NCBI GenBank assembly: GCA_003008705.1
Contig: PDUO01000060.1
Coordinates: forward strand, 175,300 to 239,299
Direction: 5' to 3'
Source of the DNA: Pezicula radicicola
Taxonomy: Eukaryota; Ascomycota; Leotiomycetes; Helotiales; Dermateaceae
DNA length: 64,000 bases
Within the stretch, counting starts at the first letter, position 1. Every line of letters begins with the position of its first letter. Below, one piece after another: positions 9,066 through 15,600 of the stretch. Made by a program: the position numbers and the translations under genes. Below the pieces are notes generated by a model that worked only from the letters and a program-made list of their open reading frames with translations, searched no databases and was not told the DNA's origin.

Positions 9066-9078
9066 ATGCGCTTCCTAA
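9058..9078 (+). promoter_or_regulatory. Upstream ORF overlapping the receptor start codon
   Basis: A six-codon frame begins at ATG 9058 and ends at TAA 9076-9078. It overlaps the main ATG at 9066 out of frame. Ribosomes would have to scan past it to make the receptor, so it could lower translation if it lies in the mRNA leader. Confidence 0.4.
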
Positions 9079-12000
9079 CCATATTGACAACAACTTTCTT
9101 TACTATCACCACTCTCGCTCAAGTCAATAACATAGAACTCGATCCTGAGACACCATCATGCGCAGTAAGCCTTCATGAGAAGAGCTTGAAGGATCTACAA
9201 CTAACTTTCTTCTTAAGTCAGCATGCGCCACAAGATACTTAGAAGTTGTTCAGTGTCAGCTAGCAGATGCAAAGAGTTGTCTCTGCACCAACAGCACACT
9301 ACAAGGACAAATCTCAGAATGTATATCAGCAGAATGTAATAGTACCGATCAAGATAGTAAGATACTTGTTCCCAGTTCCCATTTAGTCCTTCAAACCCAC
9401 ATATGGCTTCAAGTCCGAAAACTGAAATCTATAGCCACAATAAATATTCTACAGGAAACATGTAAAGGGATTCCGCAGCCAGACCGAGGCTTTGAGATAA
9501 TACGAGCCAGCATCATTCTGGCAGCCATTTCTGTTCCCATAGTCGTACTAAGACTGGTATCCCGCGTCTGTATTGCACATCGGTTTTGGTGGGATGATTG
9601 GTTTTCGTTCGCTGCTGCAGTAAGTATCCGCTCTCCGTATCTATTTGTATCGAGTAACTGACCACCTATGACAGACTATCCTAATACCTATAACCGTCTT
9701 TCAGATCCAAAGTAAGTACCTCGCCGACGTCGAAATAAAACACAATATATATTCATGAAGTACAATACTAAAGTACTATAAAGACGCCGAACTAGGCTCC
9801 GGGCAACACTTCTGGACTATACCCCCACAAAATCTAATCCAGATCCGCAAAGTAAGCAATCTTCCTATATCCTATAAAATACTAAACTAAAAACGATAAT
9901 AGCTCTACTACAGCTCTCAAATCCTCTATATCATCATCCAAAACCTCACAAAAGTCTCCATCCTTCTCCTCTACCTCCGCATATTCCCAAACGACCGCTT
10001 CCGTAGGTATACAAAATTAGTTATCGCATTAGTTTCTATCCGAACGGCGGCTTTCCTCATAGCTACTATTTGTCAATGTCTGCCCACCAAAAAAATCTGG
10101 GATTTGGAGGTCGAAGGGAAATGTATCAATTCACAAGTCCTCGCTTCCTTAGGTGCAGCTTCAAATATTATTGAGGATATTATTATCATCCTGCTGCCCA
10201 TTTGGCAATTAAGGGGCTTGCAATTATCATTTTGGAAAAAAGCGAGCTTAATACTCATTTTTACTCTAGGTTGCTTGTGAGTATATGACCACTAACTAAT
10301 AAGTTCACAAGAAATTATACTAATCTTGGCATTACAAGTATACTCCGTATGAATTTCATCATCGCTTACAGAAACACAGTTGATACCACCTGTAAGTCTC
10401 CAACCTCTTATATCAACTCAAAAACCAAACCAACACTTCTGCTTTAACTTTTCAACTAAAATTACGTGCCACTGTTCTTTGTGCACGACCCATATATAAG
10501 ACGCGACGCGTTTTCGTGCCTCCCACCACTCTTCATACAATACCACAATACCCAGCCCACGTAAATCCTTTGCTGATAGGCTTAATACCAATTGAAAGCC
10601 TCGATCCCAATTAACTAAAGACCAACGAATTGGCATTATATAAGCTGTTTTGGGTGGGGATAAAATAGGTGATGTAGTGCGTCGATTTAAGTACCATCGA
10701 AATTCGGTACGAAATATAATAAAGTGATATAAAGAGATGAATACTATACGAAATCAACCTCATCCTGGCCCGATACCTATATTAAATCGAAGAGAAAGGC
10801 GATCTCTATTCAGACTAGTTCGAAAGGAGCCTACCCTTCCCTGGGGTAGTCTTATAGAATGGTATCAAACTCGACTAGGTAAAAAGGTATTGAAAACTAT
10901 ACTTCGATATATTCTACACTCTATAAGGCTCAAACATTGGAGATCTTTGAAAAGGATATTCTTAGATAGGAGGGTTATATTATAGAGAACTTGATATTAT
11001 CGAGAATGGTAAGGGAGGGAAGTGGAGTTGACTCAGGTATATACATTAAAATAAGGTTATTTTCAAGGCTAATACCCCACCTAGGGCTACTACTCCGACG
11101 AGTGCTCTGTAGCCTTAGATACCTTGAATCCCACTGGCTGGGTATAGCGATTCTTGAACGAACGATACGAGCGATGAATGGTTAATATTACGAATCATAG
11201 GAAGCCAGATATTACTATAATGGTATGGGGGGTAATATAGTTAGGTGGGAGATCAGACCTAGTTATTATAACTAGAGATTCAGACTCTAAAGGTAATGGA
11301 TATATAACCTGGAGTTACCTATAGGCTCTTGAAGAGGTACTTCTTCCTATATATCAGCTAGGTTGATTTTATCAACAAGACAATACGAAAATATATACAT
11401 CAGGGAAGGTATAGAGGTGGTTCGAGGAGTATGGAATCTGGGTTATTGACTAGCCTGTGCACAGCCCAGATATGAACCCAATTGAATATGTCTGGCGGGC
11501 TATGAAGTCTATTTTATATAGGCAATATCCAGACATCTATTTACTTAAGAATAATAGGGAGGATGTAGAAGTTTTAAAGGGTTGGATCAAAGAGGCCTAG
11601 GAGGTGGTTCCACAAGAGCTTATTGATAGGCTTATCCTTTCTGTACCAAATAGAGTACGTGCTCTACGCAAGGCAAAAGGCTGGTATACCAAGTATTAAA
11701 GCTCTATTTTAGGGCTTTCAAATGAATGTATTATTAGATTTTTATCTATTTTATTGGGTTTTTAAATAGGTTGGGAAGATTAGGTAGATAAATCGAATTA
11801 TGGTGGGGTGGTCTGTGTTCTGGGGTATGCACAAAGATCAATGGCACGTAATTTTAATTACATTCTCAGGGAACAATACCAATATCATAATCTGGTCTCT
11901 AATCGAACAATACACAGCCCTAATCATCAACTGCCTAATCCCAATCCACCCACTCCTCACCAAATACCTACCTAGATTTTTCCTCAACCTCGTCAACAAA

Positions 12001-12309
12001 GGCCACAATTCCCTAAACCCTAGTTGGAGCCCTCCACAAAAAGAAGACAACAATAAGAACAAAAATAAACGACTCTCTTCGAAATCAGGAGCTAGACAAG
12101 AAGCTATACAGGCTCTAAGTGAGAGCGATGAGCAAGAATTGATAGCTTATTTAACAGGGATGGAGGTTGATTGTCAGAAGAAATCACGAGCTGAGACATG
12201 GTATAGTTTGGATTTACCGGAGTTTAGAGCTAAGGTTGATGATAGTTTCTTTGGTAATGATATTTGGATGGATAAGGATCTTGAGGATAGAGCGTTTAGT
12301 ATGAAGTAG
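9066..12309 (+). CDS. CFEM-domain Pth11-type seven-helix receptor, interrupted in its last intron by a transposon
   Basis: Eight exons: 9066-9164, 9218-9356, 9435-9619, 9675-9711, 9784-9851, 9903-10276, 10339-10391 and 11870-12309. They join in frame to 464 residues. A signal peptide (MRFLTILTTTFF..) is followed by a CFEM domain with the eight expected cysteines, including PSCA, ACATRY, VQCQ, KSCLC, SECIS, AEC and ETCKG. The seven-helix part follows, with family motifs DDW after helix 2, GSGQHFW, LYYSSQILY, NTVDTTW and IIIWSLIEQYTALI. The tail is cytoplasmic and hydrophilic. Pth11 of the rice blast fungus is a surface-sensing receptor of this class; the ligand here is unknown. Exon 8 lies beyond a Tc1/mariner insertion, and removing the element and one TA leaves an ordinary 80-nt intron. 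The second intron has two possible acceptors (9434 chosen for frame). Expression may be affected by the enlarged intron. Confidence 0.85.
10459..10492 (+). repeat. Left terminal inverted repeat of the Tc1/mariner element
   Basis: Matches the reverse complement of 11821-11854 with five mismatches in 34 positions; the outermost 13 bases are identical. Confidence 0.92.
10737..11699 (+). pseudogene. Decayed Tc1-like transposase
   Basis: The first part, from ATG 10737 to about 10985, reads as an HTH region (RERRSLFRLV; WGSLIEWYQTRLGKK). The catalytic part reads in one frame from about 11366 to the TAA at 11697-11699. It shows the second and third acidic positions of a DDE domain (QQDN; DMNPIEYVW). 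Between and within these parts there are many stops and frame changes. At least two stops, in the contexts ID*PVHSP and KEA*EVV, sit where related transposases carry Trp, which fits G-to-A mutation. It is not functional. Confidence 0.85.
11821..11854 (-). repeat. Right terminal inverted repeat of the Tc1/mariner element
   Basis: Inverted counterpart of 10459-10492, directly followed by the TA target duplicate and then by the receptor's 3' splice site. Confidence 0.92.
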
Positions 12310-12681: not shown

Positions 12682-15600
12682 CTACCAAGCAAACATCATC
12701 AACGCAGGATTAAGAGCAATCGGTAACATTAAATGAGAGAAAACAATTGAACAAAGCGGATATATGGCATTAAAAGTAGTGATCTTCCAAAAGACCGGGA
12801 AAAAGAAGACACCGCAGATAATCAAGGCTATCATTGCAAAGCAGAAGATAAAAGTGTATTTGAACTTCTTGGTCAGTTTTGGGAGTTCGGAAAAGAAGGT
12901 AGCATTTTCAGCCTCCTTCGAAGTGGCACCCCAAGACATGTCAATTTCGAAGAGATGGGAGAGCAGAGCTTGGGAAACATGAATGGAAATCCCGCCAAGA
13001 AATATGGTGAGAAGGAAGATCCATTTGAAATTTTCGCATACTACGGTTACATATTAGCAGGAAATCTCAAATTGAGAGCAAAAGGGTACTTACAAGATGC
13101 CAACAGGCCTTTCTCCGAAGTACGGTATCGAAGGACAGCCAATGCGATATTTCCGAGTCCGCTAAAGACGACAACAATTGCGACGTAGATTTGGAATGAG
13201 CCCAGGTAAAATTTGTCAACATAGCCGACGAACCATCCCGCCAGGAAGTAATTAAGAAGTGTGAGGAACCATGCAGCACCGATAGCGTAATATGTTCCAA
13301 TATATGCCATGATGGTGAGCTTAGCACCGATAGGCATTGAGGAGAAGACGAACTTTCGGAACAAAGGAGTGAACGGTCCTCGGATAATCCAGAAGCGTAA
13401 GGGGTGGAAGATGAGCTCGCTGCAACCATAGGCATATTTCTCCCATCTGGCTAACTCGTCATAGACTGTTAAGCTCACGCCTTCCTTGAAGCCTTCTCCT
13501 TGATATGCTGCAAGTCTAATGCTGTATCCAGTTGTTTGAAGGCGCAATGCCATGTCAAAGTCCTCCGAAACATGCGATTCGGACCAGAATTTCTCATAGC
13601 CGTCTTCCTCAAAAGTCACTTGTTGAAGAGCAGACCAACGTAGGATTGCATTGTGGCCGACAAAGGGGCAGACGTCTCCACTGGCTACTGCAAATCTAAT
13701 GGCCGTATAAATTAGATCCGTGAAGAATTTAATTCCATTCTGCGAAGCGAAAATCAGTAAATGGATCACGAAGAAAGGCAGGCAGAAGACCATTTTTGCT
13801 AACTGGTTAAACCAAAGAGAATGGGACGAACCTCAAAGAAGCTATCAGTGACCTTCATTACACCAGACGAGAACTGTAAGATTGCAACCTCTGGTGACGC
13901 TTCCATCTCGATGGCGGCATCAAGCAGGCAGTCGGTGGGAACGCGGGTGTCTGAGTCGATTATGAGAATATAATCGCCCATCCTAATATTCCCCTCAGCC
14001 CAGGCGACGCCCTGAAGCTCATCGAGTACATTTTCCATGCAAGTTCTGTAAGCTTTTTCTTCGTCTTTCTGAGTCCACTTTTCAGTGCGAACAACGTCGA
14101 CTAGTTTTCCCTCGATTCTATTGCTGACCATTAAAGCAAAATTCATGTTCGACGCCTTTTTGAACTTTCCTTTTCGCACAAAGACCGATGAGTCGTCGAA
14201 AGAGGCGTCGGCTTTCTTTGGTTTTGGATTATGCTTTGGACGTGCCACCCAGCCGATGTTGTGTTCCTCATAAAAGTCTCGGCGTTCCATGGCTTCCGTT
14301 TCTGGGATCAATTGCATTCCATCTGTATCGATTCAGTAACTGCAATCATGAATGGCATATTAGACATACCGTCATTAACGAAGATGTTGGCTGTGCCCCC
14401 CTGAAGCTCGTATGTCGATATGGCTGCTTTCAATGATTGTACAGTAGGCTTGATAACAGCATTAAGACCTTCCTTATAAACTGGCATTTGGATCGTAATA
14501 TGGGGCAGAACATCTCCATATACACGTCGTGGTGCCTTGCCGGAATATGCTTTGGAATTCATATTCATCTGGTTGACAGGAGCGAACATCTGAAAGAGAC
14601 AACCAATAATGCTTTGCATCATAAACTACATTAATTCGTTAGTATATGAGACCGTATTTTCAGATATAAAACTTACTAAGCCCACGAAGAATTCCAACGG
14701 AGTAGTGACCAACAAGATAAGCCGAGTATAAGATCCAGTGATCGAGATCTCCATTGCCAGCGCACGAAAACCAGTACCAAGCGCAGCTAGAAGAAGGCCG
14801 AGAGTACATGCCACAATAATAGGGCTCAGAAGGATAATCTTTCTAGGTTCAGAAGATAAAGCCTCCATATCATCGTCTTCTCTAGGCAACTCAACTGCTG
14901 AAGATGAGGCCGATGTCTTCTCAGATGGTACAGCAGTCGTTGTTGATGACATTATAGGCTTCTCATACTCATCAGCAGGGTCGTCACCAAAAGCGTCATG
15001 GTTGCGCCAGATGATTTGAAGTAACGTCTTTTCAAGGTTTTCCACACGGGTAATGATATGTCCTGGGTCATCGTCCCATACGACAAGCATCTTCTTATCT
15101 TGAATAAAGGCTGCAAATTGGTGCTTTGCACATTCCGGTATGTAGTCCAAGCTAGGTAGGATCTGGACATAGCTACCATTACCCAGGGACACACTTTCTG
15201 CGTCAATTTTGGAAAGGAGGACTGTTACGAGCTGCGTTTTGATCGTCATGGCACACTATCGATGTTCCGGTTAATAAAATATCCAGGCACCAAGAAAAGG
15301 AACACGAACCTTGACATTTAGAGCCATGATCTGTTGAAAGAGGCCTCCTTCGACGAGCTGAAGGCTCTCTGGGCGAGCTAAGTACTCTCCTCTGCCGAAT
15401 TTCATGACCACACCCTCCTCTGGGCCCTTCATCGTCCAAAGCTTACAATTCTGTTCTTTGTTTATTGTCTCTGCCATCATGCCATTTTGCAATTCTCTCA
15501 GTTGCTTGATGCTCAACTTCGAACCACGAGTGTTATTTGGATGGAAAGAAATATTCTGCGTAAGCTTGCGGGGAGGACTAGAATCAGTGCTTGTGGGTTG

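What the first reader, a model, noticed from the sequence alone, without database searches (positions are those of the whole stretch)
10392..11869. Tc1/mariner element sitting inside the last intron of a CFEM receptor gene
The 1,478-nt intron minus the 1,396-bp element and one TA duplicate leaves 80 nt, an ordinary intron for this genome, with its own GTAAGT donor and CTCAG acceptor. The receptor frame is intact on both sides (NTVDTT to W-NNTN). So the host gene may have kept function by treating the insertion as intron. Gene finders are likely to truncate this gene.
Basis: partly seen in the sequence, partly recalled or inferred. Interest (0 to 1): 0.75.

Follow-up and report, generated by a model that had tools for sequence, protein, structure and literature searches.

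The report
Transposon inside a fungal receptor intron
A young, mutation-riddled jumping gene sits in the last intron of a fungal cell-surface receptor gene; the insertion is real, but a second splice-site defect makes it doubtful that the receptor still works.

Summary
A 1,396-bp Tc1/mariner (DD34E) element lies at 10459-11854 between TA duplicates, inside intron 7 (10392-11869) of an 8-exon CFEM/fungal-rhodopsin (PTH11-like) gene, 9066-12309. Without it the intron is 80 nt. In the same genome, 22 of 59 paralogues examined (33 had the anchor motif) have a 44-113 nt intron at that site. Exon 8 is homologous to the receptors' last helix.

"So the gene may have kept function" is only weakly supported. 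(1) The copy is young: it differs from three sister copies by transitions only (58, 63, 65; no transversions), a RIP pattern, so an unbroken exon 8 says little. (2) The TA that was hit lies in the predicted branch site CTAAT; the right junction leaves a weaker TTAAT. (3) Intron 6 lacks the acceptor AG that 24 of 25 measurable paralogues have at that place; the fallback stays in frame but drops five residues. (4) Exon 8 departs at 3 of 12 conserved positions.

Best reading: an ordinary TE-in-intron event in an expendable, probably degenerating member of a large receptor family. The bolder reading not excluded: the inverted repeats loop the element out and the rebuilt branch site still splices.

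The parts
9066..10391 (+). Exons 1-7 of a CFEM / fungal-rhodopsin (PTH11-like) receptor gene: 9066-9164, 9218-9356, 9435-9619, 9675-9711, 9784-9851, 9903-10276, 10339-10391; six hydrophobic helices
   Evidence: Open 318-codon reading; CFEM E 9.9e-7 and Fung_rhodopsin E 3.8e-38; best homologue P0001, 54% identity over 87%; hydropathy
10277..10338 (+). Intron 6 in the fallback model; 10322-10323 reads AA where 24 of 25 measurable paralogues have their acceptor AG; the fallback acceptor is 10337-10338
   Evidence: five-column gap in the exon 6/7 junction against 33 homologues
10392..11869 (+). Intron 7, 1,478 nt, GTAAGT...CTCAG, phase T|GG; 80 nt without the insertion
   Evidence: same-site introns of 44-113 nt in 22 of 59 paralogues
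10457..10458 (.). Left TA of the target-site duplication, inside the predicted branch site CTAAT of the empty intron
10459..11854 (+). Tc1/mariner element, 1,396 bp, same strand as the gene, transposase disrupted by stops
   Evidence: 39 genomic matches including itself; DDE_3 E 4.4e-8 and HTH_Tnp_Tc3_2 E 7e-7, the latter just under its cut-off; DD34E spacing and 21 stops in the transposase frame over the whole element
10459..10492 (+). Left terminal inverted repeat
   Evidence: 29 of 34 positions match the right one
11821..11854 (-). Right terminal inverted repeat
11854..11858 (+). TTAAT at the right junction: candidate rebuilt branch site, at the same distance from the acceptor as the lost CTAAT
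   Evidence: 7.28 to 1.75 bits in a PWM from 27 introns
11870..12309 (+). Exon 8: last receptor helix and C-terminal tail, stop at 12307-12309
   Evidence: Homology in 37 of 71 homologues; one hydrophobic helix; 3 of 12 conserved positions changed

Best explanation
A Tc1/mariner DNA transposon jumped recently into a TA within the ordinary 80-nt last intron of a PTH11-like CFEM receptor gene, in the same direction as the gene, and was then mutated by RIP. The gene is one of a large family in this genome and was probably already expendable: intron 6 lacks its expected acceptor, and conserved residues of the last helix have changed. The insertion replaced the predicted branch site CTAAT by TTAAT and made the intron about 18 times longer. 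Most transcripts are therefore expected to keep the intron (stop after 18 extra residues, at 10445-10447), to end inside the element, or to be mis-spliced, giving a receptor with six helices and no seventh. SHOWN: the anatomy, the ancestral intron, youth, the RIP pattern, the altered acceptor of intron 6. INFERRED: the branch site, poor splicing, loss of function. Confidence in the anatomy alone is about 0.97; the figure below is for the whole statement.
For: Anatomy. Ancestral intron: 22 of 59 paralogues examined have a 44-113 nt intron there; the closest, L010, has 62 nt. Repeat family. Youth and RIP: 58/0, 63/0 and 65/0 transitions/transversions to L002, L003, L004; 44 changes towards A/T relative to L002 and L003 together, 42 of them at CpA, CpG or TpG. 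Intron 6: AG exactly 7 nt before the conserved motif in 24 of 25 paralogues where the motif was found, AA here; five columns, two of them 33 of 33 identical, missing at the junction. Exon 8: 3 of 12 conserved positions changed, against 0-2 in each of 33 homologues. Branch site: 7.28 to 1.75 bits; no CTRAY closer than 801 nt to the acceptor. Redundancy: 96 genomic matches to exon 6, own gene included.
Against: No RNA data. Exons 1-8 have no stop and no frameshift, and apart from the exon 6/7 junction all of the 37 columns conserved in 33 homologues are kept (34 of 37); some homologues depart at more, up to 7 of 43. TTAAT can serve: the same-site intron of paralogue L024 offers no CTRAH motif, only TTAAT. 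The branch-site PWM rests on 27 introns, and 27% of shuffled empty introns contain a CTRAY by chance. The fallback for intron 6 is in frame. The AA could be a sequencing error in a draft assembly. RIP indices give no sign that RIP spread into exon 8.
Confidence: 0.6

Rival explanations
1. The whole 1,478-nt intron is still spliced out well and the receptor works. The inverted repeats pair in the pre-mRNA, loop the element out and leave donor, branch site and acceptor in nearly their old arrangement; TTAAT serves as branch site.
For: Donor and acceptor are unchanged and the frame is kept. The minimum-free-energy fold pairs 29 of 34 left-repeat bases with the right repeat and leaves the branch A and acceptor unpaired; the pairing persists when the interior is shuffled (25-29 in 24 of 24) and is lost when the whole element is shuffled (0 in 22 of 24). 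TTAAT sits at the old distance from the acceptor.
Against: In that fold three bases of TTAAT and the first five bases of the donor are paired. Graph distance donor-branch does not discriminate: 49 here, median 19 in fully shuffled controls. Introns of this length were not seen among the 6 other introns of this gene (51-78 nt) or the 22 paralogue introns (44-113 nt). The intron 6 defect is independent of the insertion.
Confidence: 0.2
2. The gene persists as a truncated protein (CFEM domain plus six helices) made from exons 1-7, with exon 8 abandoned.
For: Exons 1-6 keep the conserved columns while the departures cluster from the exon 6/7 junction on; retention ends 18 residues into the intron.
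Against: The insertion is too young to have caused the exon 8 changes; no relative with such an architecture was sought; no RNA.
Confidence: 0.1
3. The right end of the element is exonised: an in-phase AG at 11835-11836 is used and adds 11 residues before exon 8.
For: The AG is in phase and the reading is stop-free to exon 8.
Against: No CTRAY lies near it; the stretch would add element-encoded residues just before the last helix.
Confidence: 0.04
4. Assembly artefact: two loci joined through a repeat, or base errors at intron 6.
For: The element is repeated and some genomic copies contain ambiguous bases.
Against: Exons 7 and 8 on either side belong to one receptor and join in frame with a TA duplication, which a chance join would not give. 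The single-base state at intron 6 cannot be checked without reads.
Confidence: 0.04

Closest known systems
Fungal Tc1/mariner DNA transposons (Fot1, impala and relatives; names recalled, families in Sclerotinia described in PMC4188875, abstract and passages seen)
   Same: Terminal inverted repeats, TA target, DDE transposase with DD34E spacing, dispersed copies
   Different: The S. sclerotiorum families in the passages seen are 1.8-2.3 kb with HTH_psq/HTH_Tnp_Tc5 domains and no RIP; this family is about 1.4 kb, matches HTH_Tnp_Tc3_2 weakly and is RIP-marked
Repeat-bearing introns of fungi (PMC8476143, passages seen: 15 recently gained introns with repeat elements in 12 genomes, TcMar-Fot1 among the classes)
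   Same: Tc1/mariner-superfamily DNA inside a spliceosomal intron of a fungal gene
   Different: Those introns were called newly gained; here the intron is old (paralogues share it) and the element was added
Fot1 insertion in an intron of Fusarium niaD, with transcripts ending inside the element (recalled; not found in the held library)
   Same: Tc1/mariner-superfamily element within an intron of a fungal gene
   Different: That was a laboratory mutant with measured transcripts (recalled); here a natural insertion without RNA data
Internally symmetrical stwintrons of Hypoxylaceae (PMC8469720, passages seen)
   Same: Terminal inverted repeats that can fold an intron with the branch A often left unpaired
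   Different: Those are about 100-200 nt introns without target duplications and verified as spliced; here the repeats belong to a transposon flanked by TA

Membership tests
Tc1/mariner superfamily | TA target-site duplication | tested here: met
   Here and in 6 of the 7 other full-length copies; L006 has TA on one side only
Tc1/mariner superfamily | Terminal inverted repeats | tested here: met
   29 of 34, shuffle maximum 18 of 34 in 2,000
Tc1/mariner superfamily | DDE transposase, DD34E spacing (Tc1 group; spacing rule recalled) | tested here: met
   DDE_3 above cut-off; 34 residues between second D and E
Tc1/mariner superfamily | Tc-type DNA-binding domain | tested here: inconclusive
   HTH_Tnp_Tc3_2 29.9 bits against a cut-off of 31.5, read with X at stops
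PTH11-like CFEM receptor | CFEM domain | tested here: met
   29.1 bits, cut-off 22
PTH11-like CFEM receptor | Fungal rhodopsin 7-helix domain | tested here: met
   Exon 6 131.8 bits, cut-off 27; exon 8 reading weak on its own (13.9 bits) but placed at profile positions 207-236 of 237; 6 + 1 hydrophobic helices
PTH11-like CFEM receptor | Conserved residues of helices 6-7 | tested here: not met
   Five residues missing at the exon 6/7 junction in the fallback model, 3 of 12 conserved exon 8 positions changed
Introner element (TE that creates an intron) | Intron gained with the element at an intron-free site | tested here: not met
   22 of 59 paralogues have a short intron at the site
Functional long intron | Spliced transcripts | not testable with these tools
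   No RNA data held

The most novel reading that the evidence does not exclude
The transposon hit the TA of the branch site itself, and its own end (…TTT) plus the TA duplicate rebuilt a usable TTAAT at the same distance, while its inverted repeats fold it out of the pre-mRNA, so the spliceosome still sees an 80-nt intron. Because other copies of the family also begin TAAAAT and end ATTTTA, insertion into any CTAAY branch site would leave TTAAY: a general way for such elements to be tolerated in short fungal introns.
Probability: 0.12. Interest if true: 0.6.

Novelty: new member of a known kind. Interest (0 to 1): 0.35.

Why it matters
Short fungal introns are thought to be recognised across the intron, so a 1.4-kb insertion inside one is a natural test of how far that tolerance goes (general knowledge, recalled). 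Here the ancestral intron, the insertion site relative to the branch site and the youth of the insertion are all readable, so a single RT-PCR would decide. It also cautions against reading an unbroken downstream exon as proof of function when the insertion is young.

Tried and rejected
Rejected: frame openness of exon 8 as evidence of function, because the copy has 0 transversions to three sister copies. Rejected: folding distance as support for looping-out; fully shuffled elements give even shorter donor-branch graph distances (median 19, range 5-58, against 49). Rejected: RIP as the cause of the intron 6 change; among the 44 counted changes none was G to A after A, with 100 such sites available. 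Rejected: introner origin. The count of departures in exons 1-7 alone (3 of 37) is not unusual, since homologues depart at 0-7; only the five-residue gap is.

Led nowhere: transposase protein search gave three proteins, best 71% over 54% and unnamed. The bacterial promoter/terminator scan does not apply to a fungus. Flank check of the other copies: 30 ORFs from 17 of 20 other near-complete copies went to Pfam (L004, L030, L041 left out); only L008 had related domains on both sides, and no further intronic case was seen, but the check is coarse. Nine literature searches were read as listings, with passages from six papers; none listed a branch-site insertion by a Tc1/mariner element. PMC3562529 (passages seen) reports no complete TE copy in an intronic region of Mycosphaerella fijiensis.

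Limits of the paralogue count: 59 of the 95 other exon 6 matches were examined; 26 had no anchor motif, 11 had the motif but no intron call (several clearly without an intron there), and the donors of the 22 were picked by a score, some weak (for example L012, L052, L082).

Full report
What is there. The window is G000:C108:175300-239299 of a 61-Mb assembly in 152 contigs. The best homologues of the receptor are from Leotiomycetes, the first from Coleophoma crateriformis, Helotiales; the organism itself is unnamed. The gene reads in eight exons. Its seven introns are 53, 78, 55, 72, 51, 62 and 1,478 nt. CFEM and Fung_rhodopsin match the exon readings. Exons 1-7 hold six hydrophobic helices and exon 8 the seventh.

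The element. Positions 10459-11854 (1,396 bp) are bounded by inverted repeats (29 of 34 matching) and by TA on both sides. The genome holds 39 matches including this one, a lower bound. Seven others span all 1,396 positions; 6 of 7 have TA on both sides. Thirteen more matches of 1,000 nt or longer belong to relatives with different outer ends but a shared inner repeat. The transposase frame has DDE_3, a weak HTH_Tnp_Tc3_2, DD34E spacing, and 21 stops over the element.

Age and RIP. Against L002, L003 and L004 the element differs by 58, 63 and 65 transitions and no transversion. Relative to L002 and L003 together, 44 sites have moved to A or T here, 42 of them at CpA, CpG or TpG. This is the pattern of repeat-induced point mutation, and it means the ordinary mutational clock has hardly moved. 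RIP indices of exon 8 resemble the window as a whole, so RIP does not seem to have spread into it.

The intron is older than the element. Of 59 paralogous loci examined (of 95 other matches to exon 6), 33 had the anchor motif of the last helix; 22 of these were called with an intron ending at the same place and phase, 44-113 nt long; 11 were not, several of them clearly continuous. The closest paralogue by exon 6, L010 (49% identity), has 62 nt. Exon 8 finds 37 of the 71 homologues.

The branch site. Among 27 training introns (5 of this gene, 22 paralogous), 20 have CTRAY in the last 45 nt. The empty 80-nt intron has CTAAT 16 nt from its end, and of its six TA dinucleotides the one hit is inside this motif. 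After insertion no CTRAY lies closer than 801 nt to the acceptor; the right junction reads TTAAT at the same distance. The PWM score falls from 7.28 to 1.75 bits; one of 27 training introns scores lower, the rest 3.4 or more. In shuffled empty introns 27% have a CTRAY by chance, so the branch site is a prediction (all).

Looping out. In the predicted minimum-free-energy fold 29 of 34 left-repeat bases pair with the right repeat, the stem taking in the TA duplicates and ending just before the branch A. This does not depend on the interior (24 of 24 interior shuffles keep 25-29 pairs) and disappears in 22 of 24 full shuffles. But donor-branch graph distance does not separate the real intron (49) from full shuffles (median 19), and the first bases of the donor are paired in the fold. 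Symmetrical fungal introns that fold on terminal repeats are known (PMC8469720, passages seen).

A second lesion. In 24 of 25 paralogues where the helix-6 motif was found, an AG stands exactly 7 nt before it; in this gene the two bases read AA (10322-10323). Earlier AGs would make introns of 27 and 35 nt (read), shorter than any counted here. The next AG, 10337-10338, has CTAAT upstream and keeps frame but removes five residues; the homologues have A and S at two of these in 33 of 33. Exon 8 departs at 3 of 12 positions conserved in at least 90% of 33 homologues, which themselves depart at 0-2. In exons 1-7 the other conserved columns are kept, 34 of 37. The codon changes in exon 8 cannot be blamed on so young an insertion. 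The simplest reading is that constraint on the 3' part had relaxed before the element arrived, in a family large enough (96 matches) to spare a member.

Consequences expected. Retention adds 18 residues and stops at 10445-10447, before the element. AATAAA and ATTAAA motifs lie on the gene's strand at 10718, 10781, 11045 and 11695. An in-phase AG at 11835-11836 could exonise the element's end. None of these has been observed.

Against what is known. TE-bearing introns in fungi are on record: 15 recently gained introns with repeats in 12 genomes, TcMar-Fot1 among the classes (PMC8476143, passages seen). Mycosphaerella fijiensis had no complete TE in an intron (PMC3562529, passages seen). I recall a Fot1 insertion in a niaD intron with transcripts ending in the element; searches did not find it. 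The case is therefore a new member of a known kind, of moderate interest.

Noticed in passing
L008 (G000:C31:48167-49562): Another full-length, heavily RIP-marked copy appears to interrupt a fatty-acid-synthase-like gene: FAS_I_H (weak, below cut-off) on the left and ketoacyl-synt on the right, same strand.
   Followed up: partly
L001-L008 against L029-L041: Three classes of outer ends (TAAAATTACGTGCC, TAAAATGGGGTCGC, TAAAATTCGGTTC) share the inner repeat TCTTTGTGCACG and a related body (75-82% identity), as if outer ends diverged or were exchanged.
   Followed up: partly
G000:C95:128134-128591 (L048): Two copies of the outermost 34 nt of the element face each other about 0.46 kb apart without the body: possibly a non-autonomous miniature derivative.
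   Followed up: no
element positions 593, 611, 623 in L001-L004: Three in-frame stops of the transposase are shared by this copy and its three closest sisters, so either they multiplied after inactivation with help from another transposase, or RIP hit the same sites repeatedly.
   Followed up: no
G000, 96 matches to window 9903-10277: Very large family of PTH11-like receptors.
   Followed up: partly
13047-14329: Glycosyl transferase family 2 type gene on the minus strand, next to the receptor gene.
   Followed up: no
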